Notes under the pieces: generated by a model
Told to the model about the DNA's origin: nothing
Database searches by the model: none
Seen by the model: the letters and a program-made list of their open reading frames with translations, nothing else
Source of the DNA: Pseudomonas marvdashtae
GTDB lineage: Bacteria; Pseudomonadota; Gammaproteobacteria; Pseudomonadales; Pseudomonadaceae
Reading direction: 5' to 3'
Assembly: GCF_014268655.2 (NCBI RefSeq)
Contig: NZ_JABWQX020000001.1
Location: forward strand, 2,882,001 to 2,946,000
Length of the DNA: 64,000 nt
Made by a program: the position numbers and the translations under genes
Part shown: positions 7,357-29,202 of the stretch, one piece after another
Numbering within the stretch: position 1 is the first letter of the stretch
Layout of the letters: every line of letters begins with the position of its first letter

Positions 7357-7800
7357 TCACTCCTTGGCAATCACCGAAATCTTGCCGTTGCGCTCGATAA
7401 TCGCAAACTTGATCTGCTCCAGGGTCTCGATGCCCTGGCTCGAGCGTGCCGCCTCCATGATGTCCGCTTCCGCCAGCCGGGCGTGGCGCATGCGCCCCTG
7501 AAGGATGCGGCCGTCCTCGACGATGATCGTCGGCCCGCCGTCGATCAGCCGCGACACCCAATTGGAACGCAGCTTGAGCAACGAAAATCCGACATCGATG
7601 GCGATCAGTGTGACGATGACCATGAACGCGTTGGTCAGCGAGAAATCGTCCCCCAGCAACGCCTGCTGGGTAGCCTCGCCAATGATCATCAACAGGACGA
7701 AATCGAAGGTGGTGATCTCCGCCAGCGAACGTCGGCCGGCGATCTTGAACAACACCATCAATACCGCATACATAACGGCGGCTCGCAGTACCGAATCCAT
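7357..7800 (-). CDS. DUF421 (YetF-like) membrane protein
   Basis: A 147-residue protein with N-terminal transmembrane segments (MDSVLRAAVMYAVLMVLFKI, then FDFVLLMIIGEATQQALL and NAFMVIVTLIAIDV) and a C-terminal cytoplasmic DUF421 domain with IIVEDGRILQGRMRHARL. It has the YetF arrangement in short form. It is the last gene of a three-gene minus-strand operon (CinA-like, 172-residue protein, DUF421) with gaps of 12 and 7 bp. The molecular function of DUF421 proteins is not established; Bacillus relatives are spore membrane proteins. Confidence 0.9.
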   Translation of the reverse strand: MDSVLRAAVMYAVLMVLFKIAGRRSLAEITTFDFVLLMIIGEATQQALLGDDFSLTNAFMVIVTLIAIDVGFSLLKLRSNWVSRLIDGGPTIIVEDGRILQGRMRHARLAEADIMEAARSSQGIETLEQIKFAIIERNGKISVIAKE

Positions 7801-14244: not shown

Positions 14245-16878
14245 CTATTTAGCGGTTTTCTTCATGCCGATCCGCCGGCGCATCTCGGCGGTGATGCCCT
14301 GGCGGGTCTTCTTCAGATCCGCCCACGGCTCATGCCCGACCTCTGCCAGCCGCTCATGCACGTTGTGCACGTTCCACAAGTTGGCGCCCTTGAGTTCGGC
14401 CATTTCTTCGCGGTAAATCGGCACCGACACCGGCAGCCCCTCGCGGGTCCGAGCCGCGTAAGCGCAGATGGTCGTAGCGCCGAGGCCGTTGCGCAGGTAA
14501 TCGATGAAGATCCGCCCTACCCGGTTTTTCGGCCCTGACACCGCCGAGAAGCGATCAGGCAACAGCTTGGCCATGTGACTGACGATGGCGTGACTGAAAC
14601 CCTTGACCTCGTCCCAGCCAAGTTTACGCGTGAGAGGCACCACCACGTGGATGCCCTTGCCGCCGCTGGTCTTGAGAAACGCCTTCAGGCCCAGCTCATC
14701 GAGCACCGACAAGGTCAACTGCGTGGCTTCCACCATGCTTTTCCACGGCAATGCTGGGTCTGGGTCGAGGTCGAGGACAAAGCGATCTGGCTTGTCCAGG
14801 TCGATGGACGTTGCGTTCCAGGTGTGCAATTCCACGGTGCTCATCTGTACCGCGCCAATCAGCGCTTCGGCGTTATTGATGATCATCACCGGTTGCCCGG
14901 TCAGGTCCTTGTCCAGGCTGGTGATGCCGGGAATGCCCAGCCGCTCGGGGTTTTTCTGGAAGAATAGCTCGCCGGCGATGCCATCCGGCGCCCGTACCAA
15001 CGCCACTGGACGGTCGGCCAGCTCCGGCAGGATGAAGTCGGCGACGCTGGCGTAATACTCGGCCAGCTGCATTTTTGTCGTGCCGCTGGTCGCATCGATG
15101 ATCCGGTCCGGATGGGTAATGCGCACCTTGCCCTCCAAGGCCGGCGCCTGGGTGGTCTTGGGTTTGGCTTTGGCTTTTGCCTTGGGTTTGGCGGGTGCTG
15201 GTTCCGCTTCGTCCTTGGCTGCGGCTTTTTTCCTAGCGGCTTTTTCGACCGGTTTCGGCAGTTCCTGGGTAATTGCCTTCGCCGGCTTGTCGTTGCGCAA
15301 ACCGTGGAACACCGCGTGGCGCACCGAACCTTCCTTGGTCATTTCGGCAAACGCCACTTCGGCCAGCAACTGGGGCTTGAGCCAGTGAACGCCCTTGGCG
15401 TCGTAGCCGGTGGGCGGGTTGACCACGGCGGCTTTTTTCGTTTCCAGTGGCAATAACTGCTGGTAGATGCTTTTTAGCGTGGTTTCGTTGAAGCCGGTGC
15501 CGACCTTGCCGGCGTAGCGCAGCTCACCGCTGTCGACGTCATGCAGGCCCAGCAACAGCGCGCCAAACGCGCTGCGGGCGCCCTTGGGGTCGCTGAAACC
15601 GACCACGACGAATTCCTGGCGATTCTTGCATTTGAGCTTGATCCAGTCGTTGCTGCGGCGCGACACATACGCACTGCCCTGACGCTTGCCGATCAACCCT
15701 TCCATCTGCATTTGGCAGGCACTGTTGAGCAGCGCCTCGGGAGTTTCCTCGAAGGCATCGGAGAAGCGCAGCAGCGGATCTTCGTTGGGCTCAAGCACGG
15801 CGGCCAGCGCGGCCCGGCGCTCTTCCACCGGGACGTTGCGCAAATCCATGCCGTTGAGGTACGGCAAGTCGAACAGGTAATAAGCGATCTTGCCGCTGCT
15901 GCCGGCGTCGAAGGCGTTTTGCAGGGCCTGGAAGTCCGGCACGCCTTGCTCATTGGCGACGACCATTTCGCCGTCGAGCCAGGCCGATTCCAATCCCAGC
16001 CCGGCCAAGGCCTCGGCCTGTTTCGGCAGTTTGTGGGTCCAGTCGTGGCCGTTGCGCGTGATCAAGCGCACATCGCCGTTGTCGATGCGCGCCATGACCC
16101 GGTAGCCGTCAAACTTGATCTCATAGAGCCAGTCACCACTGGGTGCGCTTTCCACCAAGGTCGCCAGTTCCGGCTTGAGGGTCTCGGGGATCGGGCCGGC
16201 CACCGCGCCGCTGAGGGTGGTCTTCGCGCTTTTTTTCGGTGGCTTCGGTTTGGCGGCTTTTTCCGGCTGTTTCACGGCTTTGGCGGCGGCAGCCTTGCCC
16301 CGACGCTTAGGCACGATGGTGCGGTCGCTGAGCACGCTGTCCGGCTCGGCCTCGACCACGTCGTACTCGCTTTCCGGACGAGCTGCGTCGTCCTGGTGCT
16401 TGATCAGGAACCATTGCTCCTGCTTCCCTGGCATGTGGGTGCGCACCAGGTTCCACAAGCCGGCGAGTTTTTCCCCGCGCAGTTCGAACTTGAGCCGGCC
16501 CTTTTCGTAGGCTTCGTGCACATCGCCCTGTGGGATCCACACGCCACGGTCCCAGACGATCACCTCGCCAGCGCCGTAGTGCCCCTCCGGGATACTGCCC
16601 TCGAATGTGGCGTAATCGAGCGGATGGTCTTCGACGTGCACGGCCAGGCGCTTGACCTTCGGGTCCAGGGACGGTCCCTTGGGCACCGCCCAGCTCTTGA
16701 GCGCGCCGTCCAGCTCCAGGCGGAAGTCGTAATGCAGTCGCGTGGCGTCGTGTTTCTGGATGCAGTACTGCAGGGCGTGGGCGGTTTTCGCCGACTTGCG
16801 CGAACGCTTCGCCGCCGGCTCCGAGGTGGCGGCGAAATCGCGCATGCGGTTGTAATCATCAAGGGTTTTGCTGGTCAT
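14245..16878 (-). CDS. ligD: LigD: multifunctional non-homologous end-joining DNA ligase/polymerase/phosphoesterase
   Basis: An 877-residue NHEJ enzyme with the Pseudomonas domain order. The N-terminal 3'-phosphoesterase has H43, H49 and D51 in QKHDATRLHYDFRLE; a lysine/alanine/proline linker follows (~195-230); the ATP-dependent ligase has its nucleotidyl lysine in EIKFDGYRV (~Lys256); a second long basic linker (~540-590) leads to the primase-like polymerase, with the DLDPDP metal motif at ~702-707 and SGGKGIHVVVPL. It is the last gene of a four-gene minus-strand operon, its ATG overlapping the stop of the YbdK-like gene by 4 bases. Its usual partner Ku is not in this window. NHEJ genes in pseudomonads act mainly in stationary phase (family knowledge). 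Confidence 0.96.
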   Translation of the reverse strand: MTSKTLDDYNRMRDFAATSEPAAKRSRKSAKTAHALQYCIQKHDATRLHYDFRLELDGALKSWAVPKGPSLDPKVKRLAVHVEDHPLDYATFEGSIPEGHYGAGEVIVWDRGVWIPQGDVHEAYEKGRLKFELRGEKLAGLWNLVRTHMPGKQEQWFLIKHQDDAARPESEYDVVEAEPDSVLSDRTIVPKRRGKAAAAKAVKQPEKAAKPKPPKKSAKTTLSGAVAGPIPETLKPELATLVESAPSGDWLYEIKFDGYRVMARIDNGDVRLITRNGHDWTHKLPKQAEALAGLGLESAWLDGEMVVANEQGVPDFQALQNAFDAGSSGKIAYYLFDLPYLNGMDLRNVPVEERRAALAAVLEPNEDPLLRFSDAFEETPEALLNSACQMQMEGLIGKRQGSAYVSRRSNDWIKLKCKNRQEFVVVGFSDPKGARSAFGALLLGLHDVDSGELRYAGKVGTGFNETTLKSIYQQLLPLETKKAAVVNPPTGYDAKGVHWLKPQLLAEVAFAEMTKEGSVRHAVFHGLRNDKPAKAITQELPKPVEKAARKKAAAKDEAEPAPAKPKAKAKAKPKTTQAPALEGKVRITHPDRIIDATSGTTKMQLAEYYASVADFILPELADRPVALVRAPDGIAGELFFQKNPERLGIPGITSLDKDLTGQPVMIINNAEALIGAVQMSTVELHTWNATSIDLDKPDRFVLDLDPDPALPWKSMVEATQLTLSVLDELGLKAFLKTSGGKGIHVVVPLTRKLGWDEVKGFSHAIVSHMAKLLPDRFSAVSGPKNRVGRIFIDYLRNGLGATTICAYAARTREGLPVSVPIYREEMAELKGANLWNVHNVHERLAEVGHEPWADLKKTRQGITAEMRRRIGMKKTAK

Positions 16879-18038
16879 GGGCCACCTGCAACTTGCGCAA
16901 GGGTGGGATCGGCCACGGGCATGCCCGCGGTTTCCGACAGCAGTTGATCGACCACTCGACTCAAGGCCTGCTCGATGGTATCGCCCAACAACAGGCCCTG
17001 TTCATACAGGACCACTTGGCGATCGGCGCTGGTGCCTTCCTGGATGATCCGGCGGGCTTGCTTGAAAACGTCCTGCACGCCCAGCGCCGTCGCGGTGTCG
17101 GCAAAGGTCTGCTCGGCGAGGTTCAGCCATTCGCCGATAAGCATGGGTTGATCCTGCCCTTCAACGATGAACTCCGCGAGGATGCCGTGGCGCTTGGCCC
17201 GGTAGCGGTTTTCCTTGAGGATCCAGTGGGACATCAGGCTGTAGTCGGCCCCCGGTTTGGGCTGAGCGACGGCATGGGCCACCATCAGGCGAAACAGCGA
17301 TACGAGACACAGGACATCGTCGATTCGCGGGCAGGCATCGCAGATGCGCAGCTCGAGGGTCGGGTACCGCGACGAAGGCCTGAGCACCCACCAGCAGTCG
17401 CTGGGCTGGCGAATGGAACCGGTGCGCGTGAGCATGTCGACGTAGCCATTGAATGCCGGCTCGCCGTCGAAAAACTCCGGTATACCCATGCGCGGCCATT
17501 CATCGCAGGCCACTTGGCGATAACTGCTGAAGCCGCTGTAGGCGCCATTCCAGAACGGCGAAGAGGCACTCAATGCCAACAGCATCGGCAGCCAGGGCAG
17601 CACTTCGTTCATGATCCGGACCCGGTCTTGGCCGGTCGGCACCTCTACGTGCACGTGCAGGCCCGACAACACACTGCGTCGCGCCACCCGCTGGTAATCG
17701 TCGAATAGTTGCTGGAAATGCAACTCGTCGGTGGGCTGCAAGCCAACGGTGGTCATCGGATGTGAGCCGGCGCTCAACAATCCCAGGCCATGGGGTGCGA
17801 GGCGTCGCGTCAGGCCGCTACGCACCTGGGCCAGGTAATCGGCCGCCTCGGCCAGGCTCTGGAAGATCGGCGAAGCCATCTCTACCTGGCTCAGGAACAT
17901 CTCGTGGGCAAAATGTTCGCCCAGCTCCTCCCGGCATGCCGCAACCGCCGCCGCGGGAGGCTGGTCGGGCATGCGCCGGGATTGCAGGTCGGTGATGAAA
18001 TATTCTTCTTCAATGCCGAACTTCAGACGCCTGTTCAT
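16875..18038 (-). CDS. YbdK-type carboxylate-amine ligase (glutamate-cysteine ligase family 2)
   Basis: A 387-residue GCS2-family enzyme. The N-terminal KFGIEEEYFIT is the family hallmark; further family stretches are HVHVEVP, WPRMGIPEFF and RPSSRYPTLELRICD. The E. coli homologue YbdK has weak gamma-glutamylcysteine ligase activity; its true role is not known. Start ATG 18038 has GGAGG 7 bases upstream; an in-frame start at 18077 has none. The start lies 29 bp inside the methyltransferase gene and the stop overlaps the ligD ATG by 4 bases, so translational coupling is likely. Family chemistry suggests amide formation between an amino acid carboxylate and an amine, possibly acting with the oxidase and methyltransferase encoded upstream. 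Confidence 0.9.
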   Translation of the reverse strand: MNRRLKFGIEEEYFITDLQSRRMPDQPPAAAVAACREELGEHFAHEMFLSQVEMASPIFQSLAEAADYLAQVRSGLTRRLAPHGLGLLSAGSHPMTTVGLQPTDELHFQQLFDDYQRVARRSVLSGLHVHVEVPTGQDRVRIMNEVLPWLPMLLALSASSPFWNGAYSGFSSYRQVACDEWPRMGIPEFFDGEPAFNGYVDMLTRTGSIRQPSDCWWVLRPSSRYPTLELRICDACPRIDDVLCLVSLFRLMVAHAVAQPKPGADYSLMSHWILKENRYRAKRHGILAEFIVEGQDQPMLIGEWLNLAEQTFADTATALGVQDVFKQARRIIQEGTSADRQVVLYEQGLLLGDTIEQALSRVVDQLLSETAGMPVADPTLAQVAGGP

Positions 18039-19011
18039 CGATGTTCCCTCCGATACCCGCACCCGTGCGGGTGACAACCAACGCCACCACGGCGATCCTT
18101 TCCACGTCCTGGTAACCCGGGGTCAGCAATTCCTCGCCGAAGACGTCCGGGTCCAACTCCCTGTAGGTCCAGCCGAACTCGGCCGAGTCGCGCCACGCGC
18201 CCAGGGCTTCGAGGAACGGATCGCGGCCATCGACCATCGCCACACCGGTATAGAGCACCAGCGAACCGCCAGGCGTAAGCCGGGGCAACGCCTGCTCGAC
18301 GATGCGCAGCGACAACCCGGCGCCCAGTGTCCCGCCGCCATGGCGGTAGGCACGCTCGGCCGGGTCGGCCATGTAAGGCGGATTGGCGACGATCAGGTCG
18401 AAGCTGCCGTCCACGTCTTGCAGCACATCACTGTGGGCAATCTCGACGTTGGCAACCTCAGCCAGCGCCGCGTTGACCGCGCACAGGCGCAAGGCCAGGG
18501 GATTGATGTCCACCGCCAGGACCTGAGCCTCGCGCCGGGCGCGGGCAATCACCATCGCCCCGACGCCGGCACCGCAGCCAATGTCCACGGCCCGATGCAC
18601 CGCGCTGAAGTTCTGTTGCAGATGAGTGTGGATCAGTTGGGCAAAACGGTAGCTGTCCGGACCAAAAAAAACCGCATCGGTAGCCTGCGTAGGAAACGGC
18701 GAATGAGCGAACAACATGCCGTCCAGGCTCGACCAGCGTACGCGGCTGTAGAGCAGGCCATCGCGCGCTTCGAGCACTTGGGCGTCCTGCAATTGGCGCT
18801 GTTCGTCGGCGGAGACCAGCCCCGGCGCAAACGGCCGCGACCAACCGAACACGTCTCGCAGGGTCTTCGAGCGCTCGTTACCGGGCCGTTGGTTGACGCG
18901 TTCGTGGGTCAACGGTGTCGGGGTGATAAAACGGTAGCCGTCGGCGTGCAGGCGACGACCCAGTTGCAACAGCGCCAGGTCAGGTTCGGACAGGCGATCT
19001 TCCTGATTCAT
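18010..19011 (-). CDS. Class I SAM-dependent methyltransferase with NPPY motif
   Basis: A 333-residue methyltransferase. A ~120-residue N-terminal region precedes the Rossmann fold, which has the SAM motif DIGCGAGVGAMVIA, the acidic LAVDINPLAL and the catalytic motif VANPPYMAD. NPPY marks enzymes acting on planar nitrogen groups (PrmC/HemK glutamine, or adenine/guanine bases), yet the rest is not PrmC-like and the substrate is open. It begins 9 bp after the haem-oxygenase-like gene and overlaps the YbdK-like start by 29 bp, so it is the second gene of the operon. Confidence 0.87.
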   Translation of the reverse strand: MNQEDRLSEPDLALLQLGRRLHADGYRFITPTPLTHERVNQRPGNERSKTLRDVFGWSRPFAPGLVSADEQRQLQDAQVLEARDGLLYSRVRWSSLDGMLFAHSPFPTQATDAVFFGPDSYRFAQLIHTHLQQNFSAVHRAVDIGCGAGVGAMVIARARREAQVLAVDINPLALRLCAVNAALAEVANVEIAHSDVLQDVDGSFDLIVANPPYMADPAERAYRHGGGTLGAGLSLRIVEQALPRLTPGGSLVLYTGVAMVDGRDPFLEALGAWRDSAEFGWTYRELDPDVFGEELLTPGYQDVERIAVVALVVTRTGAGIGGNIDEQASEVRH

Positions 19012-19020
19012 GCAAGGCTC

Positions 19021-20406
19021 CTAACGAAGGGCGGATTTGAGTTCGATGAAGCGGCGGGTCGCCAGCAACCCGGCCGGATGGCTGTGGCAGCGGGCCGAAA
19101 GCCAGGGCGTCAGGATCTGCATCTGCTCGTCGGGCGCCTTGCCCCGCAGCGTTTGTTGCAAGTTCTGCACGTCCGGGTCCTGCGCTGGTGTCGGCGGCTC
19201 ATGGGCCACGCCATGACTGCGACGGGCTCCGGGGCGGCCACGCTCGTCCAGCCAGTCACCGGCGATCCAATCGTGCAGCAGCTGTTTCTCATAGGGGCTG
19301 AACACCCCGAACATCGCGGCGCCGGCGCCTTCGATGAGGGTCCAGAACCGACTGTTTTGCGGGTCTTCGTGACGCCGGATCCAGCCTTTGCCCTGCATGG
19401 CCTTCAGGAAGCCCTCCAGTTGCCCGGGTTCCGCCAGCCATTGATTGACGGTCCGGCCTTCGAATTTGCAGTAGTCGGAATGCATGTGCTGGCCGAACGG
19501 GCGCTTGCGCTCGAGCATGTCAAGCAGTTCGCGATCCAGGTCAAACGACTCGATGACCGCACGACTGCCCTGCCCCAGATCATTGAGGCGATAGCCCCGG
19601 GTGACCCGGCGCCAGAACGATTCGCGGTCCGCCTCCATCGGCATCAACTGCATCAGCGACTGCACGGCTTTGTGGGCGTGGCCGGTGCTGGCGTTATCGA
19701 TGGTCACGTGCAGGGTGAAATAATACGGGTCAATGTCGAGTTCGCTCAGCTCGTAGGCGCTGATCAACAGGTGCAGGGGCAGTTGTTCGTAGCCCAGGTT
19801 ATAACCAATGACTTCGGGCAGGTAATCATCGCCGGCGTAGCCGAGGGCCAGTTGCACCGCGCCTTGCAGGTAGCGATCGTCATCGATGTCGGGCATGTCC
19901 GGCAGGCCGTGTTCGGCGAGCAATTTGCGGTAGAGCACCACATGGTTCTGCGCGGGCACGCCGTCACCGAGTTCTTCCAGATAGGTGCACAACAGCCCCT
20001 CGAAACGGTGGTCATGCCAGTGTTTGAGCACGCCGTACAACCAGGCGCCGTCCACCAGTTTGGTCGGCGCCACGGACTGGAGGAAATACAAGGCGTGGGC
20101 CTTGCTGGTGAAGAACTCCCGACGGCCGCCGTTTTTCCGACGTTCCAGGTAGTCGGCATATTGCAAGGCCACGTCAGCGCTGTGCTGCTCGACCCAGGCA
20201 AGCAACGCCGCGGGATCGTCGGGCATTTCCTGCGGCAGTGCGCCGGCCTGTTCGAGGCAGGGTTGCAGGAAGGCCTGGGCGACCGCTTGTTTATCAGCAT
20301 CGTCGGGGCCTTGCAGCAACCGCTCGTAGCATTGGCGCACGTTACCGACCGTGGAGAATGGCTGCGCGTCGGCAGGCCGGGATTGAAGGGGTGTCAGCGC
20401 AGTCAT
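19021..20406 (-). CDS. Iron-containing redox enzyme family protein (haem-oxygenase-like fold)
   Basis: A 461-residue predicted all-helical protein of the haem-oxygenase-like diiron family (Haem_oxygenas_2 type). Likely metal-ligand stretches are EFFTSKAHALYFL, HWHDHRFEGLLCTYLEELG and YYFTLHVTIDNASTGHA, with Glu/His/Asp spaced as expected for two iron ligands sets; this is by pattern only. Related enzymes (UndA, BesC, SznF, CADD) use iron and O2 for oxidative C-C or C-N bond chemistry. Start ATG 20406 has AGAGG 5 bases upstream; the in-frame extension to 20619 is not protein-like. It is the first gene of the operon with methyltransferase, YbdK-like ligase and LigD. Substrate unknown. Confidence 0.82.
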   Translation of the reverse strand: MTALTPLQSRPADAQPFSTVGNVRQCYERLLQGPDDADKQAVAQAFLQPCLEQAGALPQEMPDDPAALLAWVEQHSADVALQYADYLERRKNGGRREFFTSKAHALYFLQSVAPTKLVDGAWLYGVLKHWHDHRFEGLLCTYLEELGDGVPAQNHVVLYRKLLAEHGLPDMPDIDDDRYLQGAVQLALGYAGDDYLPEVIGYNLGYEQLPLHLLISAYELSELDIDPYYFTLHVTIDNASTGHAHKAVQSLMQLMPMEADRESFWRRVTRGYRLNDLGQGSRAVIESFDLDRELLDMLERKRPFGQHMHSDYCKFEGRTVNQWLAEPGQLEGFLKAMQGKGWIRRHEDPQNSRFWTLIEGAGAAMFGVFSPYEKQLLHDWIAGDWLDERGRPGARRSHGVAHEPPTPAQDPDVQNLQQTLRGKAPDEQMQILTPWLSARCHSHPAGLLATRRFIELKSALR

Positions 20407-20670
20407 AAGGGCCTCTTGGAATTCTCGGCAGGACGCTGGATCAGTACGTCTCTTCCTTTGCAGAGCCCTGCGCGGGGGAAAAAATTCCCCACAATCGAAA
20501 AGCGGCCGGATAAACGGAACCGCCTTCAGAAACGCGGAACCCTCGCTTCGCTCCGGCCCTCGAACCCTAGGCAACGACGACTCCTCCATGTAGCGAGGCA
20601 GCCTTTTGTGGTGAGCCACAGGGAATCGTGGTCATTGCCACCCGACACAGGCGTTATTCAAGGAGCAACC

Positions 20671-22014
20671 ATGATCTTCACCGTGTGGGTGGCCGTGCTC
20701 GGAGCCGTGTTGCTGACCCTGGCCCTGACGTCTTCCTACCTTCGCTGGATGCCGGTCACGACTTCGGCGGTGTGCCTGGCCTTGGGCGTCGCCATCGGGC
20801 CGGCGGGGCTCGGACTGCTGAGACTCGAAGTCGATGATTCTTCCGTATGGATGGAGCACCTGACCGAAGTCGCGGTGGTGTTCTCGCTGTTTGTCAGCGG
20901 CCTCAAGCTGCGCCTATCGCTCAAGAACCGCAGTTGGCGCGTGGCCTATGGCCTCGCCGGCCCAGTGATGATCCTGACCATCGCCGGCTTGTGCCTGGTC
21001 CTGCATTATCTGTTTGGCCTGGGCTGGGGAGTCTCGCTATTGATCGGCGCAATGCTGGCGCCCACCGATCCGGTGCTGGCGGCCCTGGTACAGGTGAACG
21101 ATGCCCGCGACGATGACCGCGTGCGTTTCGGCCTGTCCGGGGAAGCCGGATTGAACGACGGCACTGCATTTCCCTTTGTCATCCTTGGCCTGCTCATGCT
21201 GCGCGAACCCGACGGCGGTTTTCTCGGTGAGTGGGCTTTACGCAATGTCTTGTGGGCCGTGCCGGCGGGCTTGCTGATTGGCTATTGGCTGGGGCGCGGC
21301 ATCGGTCGACTGACCTTGTCGATGCGCATCAAGAACGCCGACAGCACCTTGTCGCCCAATGACTACCTGGCCCTGGCCTTGATTGCCCTTGCCTACGTCG
21401 CGGCGGAAGCCGTCCAGGGCTACGGCTTTCTCTCCGTTTTCGCCGCCGGCCTGGGGCTGCGTCAGGCCGAGGTCGACTCCGGCGATGAAGACGCGCCACC
21501 GGCCGAGCATCTGGTGCAAGCGGTGGTCGGACACGAAACGGTGGATCCCGAGCAGGCGGTGGTGGGCGACGCGCAGGGGTTGGACGACGGCCAGGTGGCG
21601 GCCGGTGTGATGATGAGCGACATGCTGGCGTTCGGCAGTTTGGTGGAGCGGTCCATGGAGGTCTTCCTGGTAACGCTCTTGGGGGTCGTGCTCGCCAGTC
21701 ACTGGGATTGGCGCGCCTTGATCGTCGGCGGACTGCTGTTCGTGGTGATACGCCCGCTGAGCGTGCTGGCGATGCCTTGGGGGCGCTTGTTGAAAGGACC
21801 GCAACGGATGTTGATCGGCTGGTTCGGCATCCGTGGCATCGGCAGTCTGTTCTACCTGTTCTATGCCTTGAACCATGATTTGCAGCCAGAAGTCGCGGCG
21901 CTGTGCATCGACCTCACGTTGTCGGTGGTAGCGCTGAGCATCCTGGTGCACGGGGTAAGCACCCAGCCCGCGCTGGCCTGGTATGAGCGCCATAAAGCGA
22001 AGCCCGACGATTAG
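20671..22014 (+). CDS. CPA1-family Na+(K+)/H+ antiporter
   Basis: A 447-residue cation:proton antiporter with about 12 transmembrane helices. Hallmarks are GAMLAPTDPVLAALV and SGEAGLNDGTAFPFVI, the E..ND motif of CPA1 exchangers, and a late GWFGIRGIGSLFYL. A ~55-residue acidic cytoplasmic loop (EVDSGDEDAPPAEHL onward) splits the protein before the last helices. The start ATG at 20671 follows AAGGAGCAACC. The same frame is open far upstream to 17971, but that part is antisense to three minus genes and is not coding. Role: extrusion of sodium or potassium in exchange for protons, for pH and salt homeostasis. Confidence 0.92.
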   Translation: MIFTVWVAVLGAVLLTLALTSSYLRWMPVTTSAVCLALGVAIGPAGLGLLRLEVDDSSVWMEHLTEVAVVFSLFVSGLKLRLSLKNRSWRVAYGLAGPVMILTIAGLCLVLHYLFGLGWGVSLLIGAMLAPTDPVLAALVQVNDARDDDRVRFGLSGEAGLNDGTAFPFVILGLLMLREPDGGFLGEWALRNVLWAVPAGLLIGYWLGRGIGRLTLSMRIKNADSTLSPNDYLALALIALAYVAAEAVQGYGFLSVFAAGLGLRQAEVDSGDEDAPPAEHLVQAVVGHETVDPEQAVVGDAQGLDDGQVAAGVMMSDMLAFGSLVERSMEVFLVTLLGVVLASHWDWRALIVGGLLFVVIRPLSVLAMPWGRLLKGPQRMLIGWFGIRGIGSLFYLFYALNHDLQPEVAALCIDLTLSVVALSILVHGVSTQPALAWYERHKAKPDD

Positions 22015-25018: not shown

Positions 25019-27331
25019 TTATGTGGGGTTATGGTGATATTTGTCGGGGGATGGGGCTTGTTCCGGCCTGACCGACCACCATTGCGGTAGCAGCCGTTGC
25101 ACCTTGGCCTCGCCAAACCGGTCGTCGATGAGCATGACGACGCCTTGATCCTGCTGGGTGCGGATGACGCGACCCGCCGCTTGCACGACCTTTTGCAGGC
25201 CGGGGTACAAATAGGTGTAATCGTAGCCATCGCCAAAAATGACCGCCATGCGTTGCTTGATCTGTTCGTTGACCGGGTTGAACTGCGCCAATCCCAAGGT
25301 GGCGATGAAGGCGCCGATCAGTCGCGAACCCGGCAGATCGATCCCCTCCCCGAACGCACCGCCCAGCACCGCGAAGCCGACGCCCTGGCTGTGTTCCATG
25401 AATCGGTCGAGGAACGCCTGGCGAGGCGCCTCGCCCATGCCGCGCGATTGCGTCCAGGTGACAATGTGCGGGTGCCGTTCGGCGAACAGTTCGGCCACTT
25501 GCTGCAAATAATCGAAGCTGCTGAAGAACGCGAGGTAGTTGCCAGGACGTTCTTCGAACTGGCGCGCCATCAGCGCGACGATAGGCTCCAGGGATGCCTG
25601 GCGATGGGCAAACCGAGTGGAAATCCGGCTGATCACCTGCACATCCAGCTGTTGCGCCTGGAACGGCGACTCGACGTCGATCCATACAGTGTCGGCCGGT
25701 GTTCCCAGCAGGTCCGCGTAATACTGGCGCGGGCCCAGGGTCGCGGAAAACAGCACGCTGCTGCGCGACGCCGTGAACCTGGGCCGCAGGAAACCGGCCG
25801 GCACGACGTTGCGCAGGCATAACGTGGAGAGGCTGCGCTGGCGACCGGACTCGCGCTTGTGGATGTCGAACAGGAAATGCTCGTCGAACGACTCCGCCAC
25901 GCGGCCGAATTGCAACGCGTCGAAGTAGAACGCTTGCAGCCCGCTGTCGAGTCCCTGGGGATGGTCGTTGAGGTAATCACCGAAGGCCGTGACGCAGGAT
26001 CCCAGCGCCTGGAGCAGCTTTTCCGGGGGTTTTCCATAGGCTTGGTAAGCGGCGATTTGCGGTTCATGCAAGGCGTTCCACTGCCGATTGACTTTCTGCA
26101 GCGCCTTCTTCAAGGGCGCGGGCGCGGTTTTCAGCACCGCCGTCAGCGCCGGCTGGTCAAGGGTCGCGCTGTACATCTGGCGGCCTCGCTCCACCAGGTT
26201 GTGCGCTTCGTCCACCAAGGTCGCGACCGTCCAGGCATTGGCCTGGGCAAGGCCGAAGAGCAAGGCGCTGAAGTCGAAGTAATAGTTGTAGTCGGCCACC
26301 ACCACATCCGCCCATCGGGCCATTTCCTGGCTCAAGTAGTACGGACAGACCTCATGAGCCAGCGCGATGTCACGCAACGCCGCCTGATCGAGCAGCGTGA
26401 TCTGGCTCGCCGCCTCGCGGGCCTGCGGCAGCCGATCGTAAAACCCGCGGGCCAGGGGACACGACTCGCCATGGCAGGCTTTGTCCGGATGCTCGCAAGC
26501 TTTGTCCCGGGCGATCATTTCCAATACCCGCAGCGGCAGCGCGGGGTCGCTTTGGGTGATCAGCCGAGCCGCGTCCAGCGCCAGCTTGCGTCCCGGGGTT
26601 TTCGCGGTGAGGAAAAATACCTTGTCCAGGCGCTGCGGCGCGAGAGCCTTGAGCATCGGAAACAGGGTGCCAACGGTCTTGCCGATCCCCGTGGGCGCCT
26701 GGGCCATCAGGCAACGACCGGTGCTCACGGCCTTGAACACCGACTCGGCCAGGTGCCGTTGCCCGGGCCTGAAACCGGCGTGGGGAAATGCCAGGGCCTG
26801 GGCCCCCAGGTTACGTGCCAGGCGATGGCCCATTTCCTGTTCGGCCCAGGCCAGGAATAGCGCGCACTGCTGCTCGAAAAACGCCTGGAGTTGCGGCGCG
26901 TCGAAGCTTTGCGCCAGGCAGGTCTCCTTTTCACTGACAATGTCGAAATACACCAAGGCCACGTCGATGCGCGGCAGTTGCAGCTTCTGGCACATCAGCC
27001 AGCCATAGATCTTCGCCTGGGCCCAATGCAACTGGCGATGGTTGTCGGGTTGTTTGCCCAGGTCGCCCCGGTACGTCTTCACCTCTTCGAGGCAGTTGCG
27101 GACCGGGTCGTAGCCGTCCGCCCTGCCCTTGACTTTCAGCGCGTGATAGACGCCCTCCAGGCTCACTTCGGCCTGATAGCCCTCACTGCGCCGCGATGCC
27201 ACGGTGCGGTGGCCGACAATGCCTTCCAGCGCCGTGGGCGACGGGGTGAAACGCAGGTCCAGATCGCCGACCTTGGCAGTGAATTCACACAACGCCCGGA
27301 CCGCGATGCTGTAGCTCGGCGCCTCGGTCAT
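25019..27331 (-). CDS. PD-(D/E)XK nuclease-DinG/XPD-family helicase fusion
   Basis: A 770-residue superfamily 2 Fe-S helicase with an N-terminal nuclease-like domain. Residues ~1-135 carry a RecB/Cas4-type pattern: D72 in GRADGY, E83-V-K85 in LEEVKTYRG and Q105-xxx-Y109. The helicase has Walker A APTGIGKT (~209-216), a cysteine set (CEHPDKAC, ESC, then HEVCPYY, ~277-327) for a 4Fe-4S cluster, DEAH at ~371-374 (LVDEAHN) and late motifs GGAFGEGIDLPG and QAAGRVIRT. Start ATG 27331 overlaps the stop of the upstream FAN1-type nuclease gene by 4 bases (ATGA), so the two are coupled. Probable 5'-3' helicase unwinding damaged or branched DNA. Confidence 0.9.
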   Translation of the reverse strand: MTEAPSYSIAVRALCEFTAKVGDLDLRFTPSPTALEGIVGHRTVASRRSEGYQAEVSLEGVYHALKVKGRADGYDPVRNCLEEVKTYRGDLGKQPDNHRQLHWAQAKIYGWLMCQKLQLPRIDVALVYFDIVSEKETCLAQSFDAPQLQAFFEQQCALFLAWAEQEMGHRLARNLGAQALAFPHAGFRPGQRHLAESVFKAVSTGRCLMAQAPTGIGKTVGTLFPMLKALAPQRLDKVFFLTAKTPGRKLALDAARLITQSDPALPLRVLEMIARDKACEHPDKACHGESCPLARGFYDRLPQAREAASQITLLDQAALRDIALAHEVCPYYLSQEMARWADVVVADYNYYFDFSALLFGLAQANAWTVATLVDEAHNLVERGRQMYSATLDQPALTAVLKTAPAPLKKALQKVNRQWNALHEPQIAAYQAYGKPPEKLLQALGSCVTAFGDYLNDHPQGLDSGLQAFYFDALQFGRVAESFDEHFLFDIHKRESGRQRSLSTLCLRNVVPAGFLRPRFTASRSSVLFSATLGPRQYYADLLGTPADTVWIDVESPFQAQQLDVQVISRISTRFAHRQASLEPIVALMARQFEERPGNYLAFFSSFDYLQQVAELFAERHPHIVTWTQSRGMGEAPRQAFLDRFMEHSQGVGFAVLGGAFGEGIDLPGSRLIGAFIATLGLAQFNPVNEQIKQRMAVIFGDGYDYTYLYPGLQKVVQAAGRVIRTQQDQGVVMLIDDRFGEAKVQRLLPQWWSVRPEQAPSPDKYHHNPT

Positions 27332-28980
27332 GCGCCCTGCTCCGCCCATTGCACGTAACAGACTGCAACGGGCATCCGGTGCTCATGGCAGAAGTCCAAC
27401 CAGCGCAATTGGTTGTCCTGCAGGCGATCACCCGGGCCTTTGACTTCAATCATGCGGTAGGTCTTGTGCTGCGGCCAGAACTGGATCAGGTCGGGCATGC
27501 CGGCGCGGTTGGCCTTGATATCCAACAGCAGGCGGTTGAACCAGTGCCTGAGGTGTTCAGCCGGCAAGCAATCGAGCGCTTGGTCCAGCAGTTCCTCGGA
27601 CAGCGCGCCCCAGAATACGAAAGGCGATTGCACGCCCGATTTTTCTGCGTAGCGGCGGCGGATGGTGTGCCGATAGCGACCGTCCTCCAGCTCGGCGAAA
27701 CACGCCGCGAACAGCTCGGCGCGGCGGTCATGGAAATCTTCATGGAGCAGGTCCACCGGGCCGCGCTGGAACGGGTGGAAAAAGGCGCCCGGCAGCGGCG
27801 CGAAGATCGCCGGCCAGCACAACAGGCCGAACAGCGAGTTGACCAGACTGTTCTCGACGTAATGTACCGGCGCGGCCTCATCATGCAGATGCGCCTGGAC
27901 GCAATACTCCACCGACAGGGCCGGGTCGACGCGGGGCAAATGCAGGTCCAGCCGCTCCACCGCCCGAGCCATCGCCCGTGGCACCGGTGGCCCACCCAGT
28001 TTGCGTCGCAATCGAGGCACTATCCTCAGCACGGCCTGATGTTCGGCGCCATTTTGCGGCGACTGGGCTGCCGCTTCGCCCAGCTCGAGGGCCAACGCAT
28101 ATTCGCCGATCCGCTCCAGCACGCGGATCATCCGCAGCCGCGCGCCGGGGTACGTGCAATCGCGATAAATGCGCAGGGCCAAGGCAAAATCGCCGATACG
28201 CTCGCCGTGCTGGCCGATCTGGAACAACAATTTGCCCCGGCGGCGCTCCAGCCAAGGGTTGTCCAGAACCAGGCTGTCGACCTGGGTGACGATCGATTCG
28301 AGCGGCTCGCCAGCCTCGAAAGCTTGCTGGCATTGATGCAGGAAAAAACACGCATTGATGTCCTGTCGGCTGCGCAATCCCCGCGATTCGACGCTGAACT
28401 CGACCGTTTCATAAGTAAAGATGCCCAGGTCCGCCAGCACGAACTCCGACCAGTCCTGGTAAAGATTACCGAAAAACATCAGTCGCAAGCGGTCGCATAG
28501 CGCCATGACCGTGACGCTGAACAGTCGATCCTCGAGCTGAGGGCACCAATCGCGAAACGGCTGGGGTTGGCTGCAATGATCGCTCAATGCTTGCAGCCAT
28601 TGGGTCTTCTTCGCCTTGGGGTGCTCGATCAAATGACCCAGGCAAAGGAGGACTTCCTGCTTGAGCAACACGTCAAACAGCTCGACCAGAGTAAGATCGG
28701 CGTGCTCCTCGACCCAGCCCAGCGCCAACAACGGCGCCACGGCGAGGTCGATTTCGCCGATTTCGCCGTAGTGCAGTTTGTTGCGGCGAAAGTGCAGCCC
28801 CTTGCGCATCACCAACCGTACCAACAACCCCTGGGACGAGCGCGGCAATGCCGAGAAATCCTCGATGAAGCGCAGTTCTTCGCTGCCGAGCACATCGGCG
28901 TAACGTTGCGTCAGCCATGCGAGTACTCGCTGGAAGTTGTTCAGATAGTAAAAGGGATCGTCGAGGGGGTTGGCTGTCAC
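27328..28980 (-). CDS. FAN1-type VRR-NUC structure-specific nuclease
   Basis: A ~550-residue nuclease. The C-terminal VRR-NUC domain shows the active-site pattern MPDLIQFW (~495) followed by IEVKGPGDRLQDNQ (~510), the same block as in human FAN1 and the structurally studied P. aeruginosa enzyme. The N-terminal half contains the SAP-like/DNA-binding and helical parts (LRFIEDFSALPRSSQGLLVRLVMRKG). FAN1 cuts 5' flaps and unhooks interstrand crosslinks (family knowledge). Start is uncertain: GTG 28980 (VTANPLDDPFYYL) fits the family length best, while TTG 29055 would add 25 residues; neither has a strong ribosome site. Coupled by ATGA to the downstream helicase. Confidence 0.88.
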   Translation of the reverse strand: MTANPLDDPFYYLNNFQRVLAWLTQRYADVLGSEELRFIEDFSALPRSSQGLLVRLVMRKGLHFRRNKLHYGEIGEIDLAVAPLLALGWVEEHADLTLVELFDVLLKQEVLLCLGHLIEHPKAKKTQWLQALSDHCSQPQPFRDWCPQLEDRLFSVTVMALCDRLRLMFFGNLYQDWSEFVLADLGIFTYETVEFSVESRGLRSRQDINACFFLHQCQQAFEAGEPLESIVTQVDSLVLDNPWLERRRGKLLFQIGQHGERIGDFALALRIYRDCTYPGARLRMIRVLERIGEYALALELGEAAAQSPQNGAEHQAVLRIVPRLRRKLGGPPVPRAMARAVERLDLHLPRVDPALSVEYCVQAHLHDEAAPVHYVENSLVNSLFGLLCWPAIFAPLPGAFFHPFQRGPVDLLHEDFHDRRAELFAACFAELEDGRYRHTIRRRYAEKSGVQSPFVFWGALSEELLDQALDCLPAEHLRHWFNRLLLDIKANRAGMPDLIQFWPQHKTYRMIEVKGPGDRLQDNQLRWLDFCHEHRMPVAVCYVQWAEQGA

Positions 28981-29202
28981 GGAAAAGCGCCACGCATGCG
29001 GGAAGTACTGGTTATGCGTACAGATATCAGCTACTCGCGGCCCAAGCAACTGCAAAAGATGAGCGGTCTTCTATATTTAAAGGTGAAATCCTTCAATCGG
29101 CGATGAACTTTCCTACGGCAAGCGAGACCAATGGCGGTTAACTCAGTGATGGCCTGGTCGAATCAGCCAGGCTCGCGTCTTTTTGACTAGAGGTTATGGA
29201 CT

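What the first reader, a model, noticed from the sequence alone, without database searches (positions are those of the whole stretch)
14245..20406. Four-gene operon joining a haem-oxygenase-like oxidase, an NPPY methyltransferase, a YbdK carboxylate-amine ligase and LigD
All four genes are on the minus strand and tightly packed: 9-bp gap, 29-bp overlap and 4-bp overlap. An O2-using diiron-type enzyme, a methyltransferase and an amide-forming ligase together look like a small-molecule or protein-modification route, yet they are locked to the NHEJ ligase. One idea is that the first three make a compound or modification tied to stationary-phase DNA repair; another is that ligD is only co-regulated. 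Sequence shows the packing; function is inference.
Basis: partly seen in the sequence, partly recalled or inferred. Interest (0 to 1): 0.72.

Follow-up and report, generated by a model that had tools for sequence, protein, structure and literature searches.

The report
Drying-stress operon with DNA-repair ligase
Four packed bacterial genes join a relative of a newly described drying-tolerance protein with a methyltransferase, an amide-forming ligase and a DNA-break repair ligase, which suggests one stress-survival operon and gives a way to test how that protein protects cells.

Summary
The four-gene operon is real and as described; the joint-function idea is partly supported. The first gene encodes a homologue of Acinetobacter baumannii DtpC (39.8% identity over 417 residues; the three residues DtpC needs for protection are kept), a haem-oxygenase-like oxidase that limits peroxide and mutation in dried cells. 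In 37 of 37 oxidase-bearing genomes of the genus (59 searched) the methyltransferase lies directly downstream: the pair is the core unit. YbdK occurs in 17 of 59, always with the oxidase, beside the pair in 13. All 37 carry Ku and LigD; Ku is in 9 of the other 22, and the association survives a tree-aware test. LigD adjoins the pair in one clade; Ku or LigD lies within 10 kb in 20 of 37. An AlgU-like promoter motif precedes the operon. Predicted structures place the oxidase nearest N-oxygenases and the methyltransferase nearest N-methyltransferases. Best reading: a desiccation/oxidative-stress operon in which that pair makes or modifies a small molecule and LigD repairs breaks. The chemistry is inferred; A. 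baumannii lacks the methyltransferase.

The parts
19021..20406 (-). Haem-oxygenase-like oxidase (HDO), 461 aa, DtpC homologue; HDO domain about residues 15-300; the part after about 300 was barely tested in the structure comparison
18010..19011 (-). Class I SAM methyltransferase, 333 aa, NPPY at 210-213, likely N-methyltransferase
16875..18038 (-). YbdK-family carboxylate-amine ligase, 387 aa
   Evidence: PRK13515 406.8 bits (cut-off 371), TIGR02050 302 bits (cut-off 176.4); present in 17 of 59 genomes, all oxidase-bearing, within 1.5 kb of the oxidase in 13
14245..16878 (-). ATP-dependent DNA ligase LigD, 877 aa, with phosphoesterase, ligase and primase-polymerase domains
   Evidence: PF13298, PF01068, PF04679, PF21686; PRK05972 1246 bits
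20461..20487 (-). Putative ECF-sigma (AlgU-like) promoter: GAATTT-17 nt-TCTG, 55-81 nt upstream of the oxidase start
   Evidence: only match in the window, 0.16 expected; GAATTT-N16/17-TCTG found in 22 of 51 oxidase upstream regions (21 of 48 distinct loci) and 0 of 252 control genes (3 of the 252 have GAACTT-N16/17-TCT); AlgU consensus GAACTT-N16/17-TCTNN as quoted in PMC7641640 (passage)

Best explanation
This is a stress-survival operon, probably switched on by an ECF sigma factor of the AlgU type under drying, osmotic or envelope/oxidative stress. Its core is a two-enzyme module: an oxygen-activating dimetal oxidase homologous to the desiccation-tolerance protein DtpC, and an N-methyltransferase. 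The oxidase most likely N-oxygenates, and the methyltransferase N-methylates, a nitrogen-bearing small molecule or peptide; YbdK, an optional third enzyme, forms an amide bond (glutamyl type) on substrate or product. The outcome, by analogy with DtpC, is less peroxide and less DNA damage in dried cells. LigD, the last gene, contributes by sealing the double-strand breaks that still arise. LigD shares the programme, not the chemistry. Shown here: gene order, homology, conserved candidate metal ligands, co-occurrence, promoter motif. Inferred: metal binding, N-oxygenation, N-methylation, the product, the inducing signal, co-transcription.
For: DtpC homology: 39.8% identity over 417 residues with the A. 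baumannii protein whose ORF ends 54 bp before a catalase ORF, the distance given for dtpC-katE; DtpC E143, H153 and H232, each needed for protection, are E145, H155 and H233 here. Either DtpC or KatE limits peroxide and desiccation-induced mutation. Stress setting: in the 3 plasmid hits opened (of 30 records matched) the homologue lies near catalase, DUF421 and trehalose genes (two Acinetobacter) or ferritin-like and YsnF/AvaK genes (Comamonadaceae). Pairing: methyltransferase directly downstream in 37 of 37. YbdK only in oxidase-bearing genomes, 17 of 17 (tree-aware p = 4.8e-4). NHEJ: 37 of 37 with Ku and LigD, p = 1.7e-5. Enzyme type: closest structures are N-oxygenases and N-methyltransferases. 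Promoter motif 22 of 51 against 0 of 252.
Against: The A. baumannii record has no orthologue of the methyltransferase (best 56 bits), nor have G253 and G264 (55 and 53 bits); in G351 it lies elsewhere in the genome. Outside the window's family it is beside the oxidase in 4 of 8 families seen. YbdK is missing from 20 of 37 oxidase-bearing genomes. LigD is not within 10 kb on the same contig in 19 of 37. Outside the genus 2 of 9 oxidase-bearing genomes lack Ku (G339, G417), and within it G444 does. DtpC did not protect against acute peroxide, and the dtpC single mutant had a wild-type mutation frequency. The motif has T where the AlgU consensus has C, so another ECF factor may be meant; it was not found upstream of the Acinetobacter and Comamonadaceae homologues. 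Stress genes may cluster, so linkage to Ku/LigD may reflect a shared island; no control stress gene was run through the same test. N-oxygenase is the nearest fold class, not a demonstrated reaction: identity is 10-16% and Foldseek alone gave no match at E 0.001 or less.
Confidence: 0.6

Rival explanations
1. LigD is only a passenger: the oxidase-methyltransferase(-YbdK) unit and LigD sit together because stress genes cluster in one island, and the four proteins share nothing but a promoter. (The confidences of the rivals overlap; they do not exclude each other or the stress-operon reading.)
For: Directly attached LigD marks one oxidase clade only and LigD is not within 10 kb in 19 of 37. DtpC acts in A. 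baumannii from an operon with katE, not ligD. In G033 Ku lies 3 kb from the oxidase with an Asp/Arg hydroxylase and a glucose/sorbosone dehydrogenase gene nearby.
Against: Co-occurrence holds even where the genes are unlinked: 37 of 37 oxidase-bearing genomes have Ku, 9 of 22 others do, p = 1.7e-5 on the gyrB tree. Linkage is seen in five unlike forms, four in the genus and one in another genus.
Confidence: 0.35
2. The oxidase protects by holding iron or scavenging reactive oxygen itself; the methyltransferase and YbdK do something separate.
For: The DtpC authors leave this open: iron sequestration, scavenging, or making a protective molecule; a chelator improved drying survival of dtpC mutants. 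The A. baumannii record has no methyltransferase orthologue.
Against: The methyltransferase is beside the oxidase in 37 of 37 genomes of the genus and in 4 of 8 other families, which is hard to explain if the oxidase works alone there. The fold is closest to substrate-converting HDOs.
Confidence: 0.25
3. The pair modifies a protein or peptide (for example an Asn/Gln side chain of a stress or repair protein) and not a small molecule.
For: The closest structure to the methyltransferase is AerE, solved with a peptide substrate (7rc6); that it methylates Asn side chains, and that PrmC acts on a protein Gln, is partly recalled.
Confidence: 0.2

Closest known systems
DtpC of Acinetobacter baumannii (PMC13232832)
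   Same: Homologous over nearly the whole length (39.8% over 417 residues), same three tested residues, stress setting
   Different: In A. baumannii it is co-transcribed with katE, and the record searched has no orthologue of the methyltransferase; here it leads an operon with methyltransferase, YbdK and LigD
HDO N-oxygenases RohS, HrmI, SznF
   Different: 10-16% identity; about 160 further C-terminal residues, barely tested; different gene company; substrate unknown
AerE (aeronamide N-methyltransferase) and GenN (gentamicin N-methyltransferase)
   Different: 20-23% identity; different gene company; substrate unknown
Bacterial NHEJ (Ku-LigD)
   Same: LigD complete with three domains; Ku elsewhere in the genome
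   Different: Here the full-length ligD is in the oxidase operon, about 74 kb from ku, which has its own shorter LigD-like gene beside it
YbdK / PRK13515 carboxylate-amine ligases
   Same: Above NCBIfam cut-offs
   Different: In this genus sample found only in genomes with the oxidase-methyltransferase pair (17 of 17)

Membership tests
HDO superfamily (PF14518) | Curated family match | tested here: met
   102.3 bits, cut-off 28.9
HDO superfamily (PF14518) | Three-His/three-carboxylate ligand set on core helices 1-3 | tested here: inconclusive
   E145, H155, E207, H233, D237 and H243 kept in 53 of 53 loci, but the third His is five residues from the Asp (two in SznF, recalled) and the model stretch 236-240 has pLDDT below 50, so the geometry is open
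HDO superfamily (PF14518) | Binds two metals and activates O2 | not testable with these tools
   needs protein
DtpC | Full-length sequence homology with the functional residues | tested here: met
   39.8% over 417 residues; E143/H153/H232 equivalents present; strict orthology not tested
DtpC | Operon with katE | tested here: not met
   the flanking genes are a Na+/H+ exchanger and a long sensor-kinase-like frame (read by eye); no catalase adjoins
DtpC | Protects dried cells | not testable with these tools
   needs mutants
3H/4C N-oxygenases (SznF type) | Extra carboxylate ligand from an auxiliary helix | tested here: inconclusive
   D119 kept in 53 of 53; its match to the SznF ligand rests on recalled numbering
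PrmC (release-factor methyltransferase) | NCBIfam TIGR03534 cut-off | tested here: not met
   75.2 bits against 199.1
AerE/GenN-like N-methyltransferases | Shared whole-length fold with N-terminal domain | tested here: met
AerE/GenN-like N-methyltransferases | Methylates nitrogen | not testable with these tools
   needs assay
YbdK carboxylate-amine ligase | PRK13515 / TIGR02050 cut-offs | tested here: met
   406.8 / 371 and 302 / 176.4 bits
NHEJ LigD | PE, ligase and Prim-Pol domains, with Ku in the genome | tested here: met
   Ku at G000:C1:2973033-2973581
AlgU promoter | GAACTT-N16/17-TCTNN | tested here: inconclusive
   GAATTT-N17-TCTG: one mismatch; the search allowed C or T and all 22 matches had T

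The most novel reading that the evidence does not exclude
The oxidase, methyltransferase and YbdK make a new kind of protectant: an N-oxygenated, N-methylated, glutamyl-linked small molecule that soaks up oxidants or iron in drying cells, and this pathway co-evolves with non-homologous end joining as the 'prevent' half of a prevent-and-repair programme. It would also mean that DtpC-type proteins protect by biosynthesis, not by binding iron.
Probability: 0.3. Interest if true: 0.82.

Novelty: new variant of a known kind. Interest (0 to 1): 0.62.

Why it matters
The studied member of this oxidase branch (DtpC, 2026) protects dried cells by an unknown mechanism; its authors name three options. 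The constant methyltransferase partner in Pseudomonas-type genomes, the frequent amide ligase and the N-oxygenase-like fold point to the biosynthetic option and name the genes to delete. The recurrent tie to Ku and LigD suggests that NHEJ in this genus belongs to a drying/oxidative-stress programme, which would give a testable physiological role to a repair pathway whose natural use in these bacteria is, to my own knowledge, little explored.

Tried and rejected
Rejected: PrmC identity of the methyltransferase (75.2 bits against a cut-off of 199.1). Rejected: anti-phage defence; PADLOC gave no match for oxidase, YbdK or LigD, and for the methyltransferase seven models matched over the shared methyltransferase fold only (best 75.5 bits over residues 136-262). 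Not found: a near copy of the oxidase-methyltransferase stretch on plasmids. Led nowhere: a sigma-70 promoter scan (0 found); literature searches for ligD with the partner genes, with RpoS, AlgU or stationary phase. Of those I saw listings only (0 papers; 10 of 360 listed), so 'not in print' means no more than that these listings of an open-licence library showed nothing. A paper on water-stressed P. synxantha holds none of five terms tried (term search only).

Rows dropped before counts: G044's oxidase match (49 residues, E 5.9e-5) was not counted, hence 37, not 38, of 59. Four phylum matches of 62-79 bits to frames of 736-758 codons were not counted, hence 17, not 21, of 398. LigD is in 48 of 59 at E 1e-60, two of them (G044, G052) partial only. 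Alignments used part of what was held: A1 the window and 18 of the 30 oxidase loci, A2 21 rows, A3 19 rows. Distances are between alignment ends on one contig; a contig break can hide a neighbour. In some searches the upstream set of 51 holds three loci twice (L031/L085, L038/L069, L039/L068), and a few loci given dropped out for want of a start; distinct counts are 21 of 48 strict, 31 of 48 relaxed, 9 of 24 relaxed outside the core group. The Fisher values use the undeduplicated counts and related sequences, so I do not lean on them. Control genes are crude gene calls from the window and L068-L089. In one search some rates ran to their bounds, so its p values are approximate. In one search the label 'M only' was a default: G264 has no methyltransferase orthologue and G351 has it elsewhere.
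Full report
What is there. The four minus-strand genes at 14245-20406 are present as described. From the 5' end: a haem-oxygenase-like oxidase (19021-20406, 461 aa), a class I SAM methyltransferase with an NPPY motif (18010-19011, 333 aa), a YbdK-family carboxylate-amine ligase (16875-18038, 387 aa) and LigD (14245-16878, 877 aa). Junctions are 9 bp apart, 29 bp overlapping and 4 bp overlapping (ATGA), each start preceded by a purine-rich stretch. Pfam and NCBIfam support each name; LigD has all three NHEJ domains, and the methyltransferase falls far short of the PrmC cut-off. The genome is 5.9 Mb in 18 contigs; that it is a Pseudomonas is my inference. Ku lies outside the window at C1:2973033, next to a second, shorter LigD-like gene.

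What travels together. In 59 genomes of the same genus, the oxidase is in 37 and the methyltransferase in the same 37 (one 49-residue oxidase match in G044 not counted). The methyltransferase lies downstream on the same strand, alignment ends at most 219 bp apart, in 37 of 37. YbdK is in 17 of 59, every one oxidase-bearing, and within 1.5 kb of the oxidase in 13 of those 17, in three arrangements: downstream (8), divergent upstream (4) and convergent downstream (1). LigD follows on the same strand within 2.6 kb in 16 of 37; the exact four-gene form is in 4 (G000, G010, G035, G039). In the oxidase tree the directly attached LigD marks one clade. In the sister clade, G005 and G049 keep a 64%-identical YbdK elsewhere in the genome, so YbdK entered or left the operon within this group; the direction is not settled. 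Beyond the genus the oxidase is uncommon: 10 of 244 genomes of the order match, one of them (G187) the weak, longer type. Outside the window's family the methyltransferase adjoins the oxidase in 4 of 8 families seen (G339, G417 divergently, G479, G530) and not in the families of G253/G264 and G351, in Acinetobacter or in the Comamonadaceae plasmid.

The tie to end joining. All 37 oxidase-bearing genomes have Ku and a LigD match; of the 22 others 9 have Ku. On a gyrB tree of the 59, a dependent model of gain and loss beats an independent one for oxidase and Ku (likelihood ratio 27.4, p = 1.7e-5) and for oxidase and YbdK (20.1, p = 4.8e-4) (one-gene tree, midpoint root, my own script, some rates at their bounds). 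By parsimony the oxidase changes 13 times, Ku 9 and YbdK 11. Ku or LigD lies within 10 kb of the oxidase in 20 of 37, in unlike forms: LigD attached (15), LigD 2.5 kb from the oxidase (G020), Ku 3-4 kb downstream beyond YbdK with LigD 7-8 kb off (G045, G057), Ku 3-4 kb downstream on the other strand (G033, G034); in another genus (G115) LigD lies beyond a divergent YbdK. Across 398 genomes of the phylum, 14 of 17 oxidase-bearing genomes have Ku against 75 of 381 others; G444, G339 and G417 have the oxidase without Ku. These phylum counts are not corrected for kinship. A shared stress island could produce part of this; no control stress gene was tested.

What the oxidase is. A tblastn search of plasmid records matched 30 records, 14 of them Acinetobacter, those at about 38-39% identity, and a Comamonadaceae plasmid at 44%. 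In the A. baumannii record the oxidase ORF ends 54 bp before a catalase ORF, the distance given for dtpC and katE in PMC13232832 (abstract, sections 6, 9 and 10 and passages read). Counting from the start that gives a 469-residue protein, its residues 143, 153 and 232 are E, H and H, as in the paper, and they align with E145, H155 and H233 here. Complementation with alanine at any of the three failed to restore survival. [quoted passage not shown] So this gene belongs to the DtpC branch; orthology in the strict sense was not tested. Of the plasmid hits, three were opened: A. ursingii and Acinetobacter sp. LUNF3 (catalase, DUF421, trehalose genes nearby) and the Comamonadaceae strain (YsnF/AvaK, ferritin-like). 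The window itself has a DUF421 gene at 7357-7800, and a FAN1-type nuclease and DEAD_2 helicase pair at 25019-29055.

Regulation. Upstream of the oxidase, GAATTT-17 nt-TCTG lies 55-81 nt before the start (20461-20487, minus strand), the only match in the window. The motif recurs in 22 of 51 oxidase upstream regions, 21 of 48 without repeats, and in 0 of 252 control genes, of which 3 have the AlgU form GAACTT-N16/17-TCT; a looser form is in 34 of 51 (31 of 48) against 8 of 252. It resembles the AlgU consensus GAACTT-N16/17-TCTNN (passages of PMC7641640 and PMC10651043) with T for C at one place. AlgU is described as needed for withstanding oxidative stress and for forming desiccation-resistant cysts in Azotobacter (passages). 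No motif was found upstream of the Acinetobacter and Comamonadaceae homologues.

Against the reading. The A. baumannii record, G253 and G264 have no methyltransferase orthologue. YbdK is absent in 20 of 37 and LigD is not within 10 kb in 19 of 37 oxidase-bearing genomes. Nothing here shows co-transcription, metal binding or any reaction.

Verdict. The new element is the constant methyltransferase partner in this genus, the YbdK tie, the NHEJ co-occurrence and the ECF-type promoter motif, which together favour biosynthesis of a protective compound as the way these oxidases work. New variant of a known kind.

Noticed in passing
window 25019-29055 (minus strand): FAN1-type nuclease (VRR_NUC, FAN1_HTH, SAP) beside a DEAD_2 helicase, another DNA-repair pair about 5 kb from the operon.
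   Followed up: no
L064 (genome G187): At a site flanked by the same DUF533 and cupin genes as in the LigD clade, and next to LigD, there is in place of the oxidase-methyltransferase pair a cluster with a 703-aa protein with a C-terminal HDO domain, a carbamoyltransferase, a TauD-type dioxygenase, an ATP-grasp ligase and an SDR.
   Followed up: partly
L063 (genome G417): A second, 34%-identical oxidase has N and Q in place of E145 and H155 and no methyltransferase beside it: a likely metal-free paralogue.
   Followed up: no
G000:C1:2973033-2975885, outside the window: Ku with its own shorter LigD-like gene (matching residues 229-874 of the window LigD, not the phosphoesterase part), so the genome has two LigD-type proteins.
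   Followed up: no
window 17971-22014 (plus strand): A 1347-codon open frame runs antisense through the oxidase and methyltransferase genes into a Na+/H+ exchanger gene (20671-22011); the antisense part is most likely a high-GC artefact.
   Followed up: partly
window about 20432-20450 (minus strand), alignments A4 and A5: A conserved near-palindrome (GACGTGCTGATTCAGCGTC type) follows the promoter motif in the 5' leader of the close relatives; it could be an operator or hairpin.
   Followed up: no
L101, L103 (Acinetobacter plasmids): The DtpC homologue lies near a separate gene set of acyl-CoA dehydrogenase, PIG-L deacetylase, methyltransferase and glycosyltransferase; that methyltransferase gave no match to the window's.
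   Followed up: no
literature, PMC12914303: One passage says that ABUW_2437 (dtpC) and katE are downregulated in glutathione-deficient A. baumannii, and calls both Fe-S proteins, which does not fit an HDO; a possible thiol link, of interest beside YbdK.
   Followed up: no
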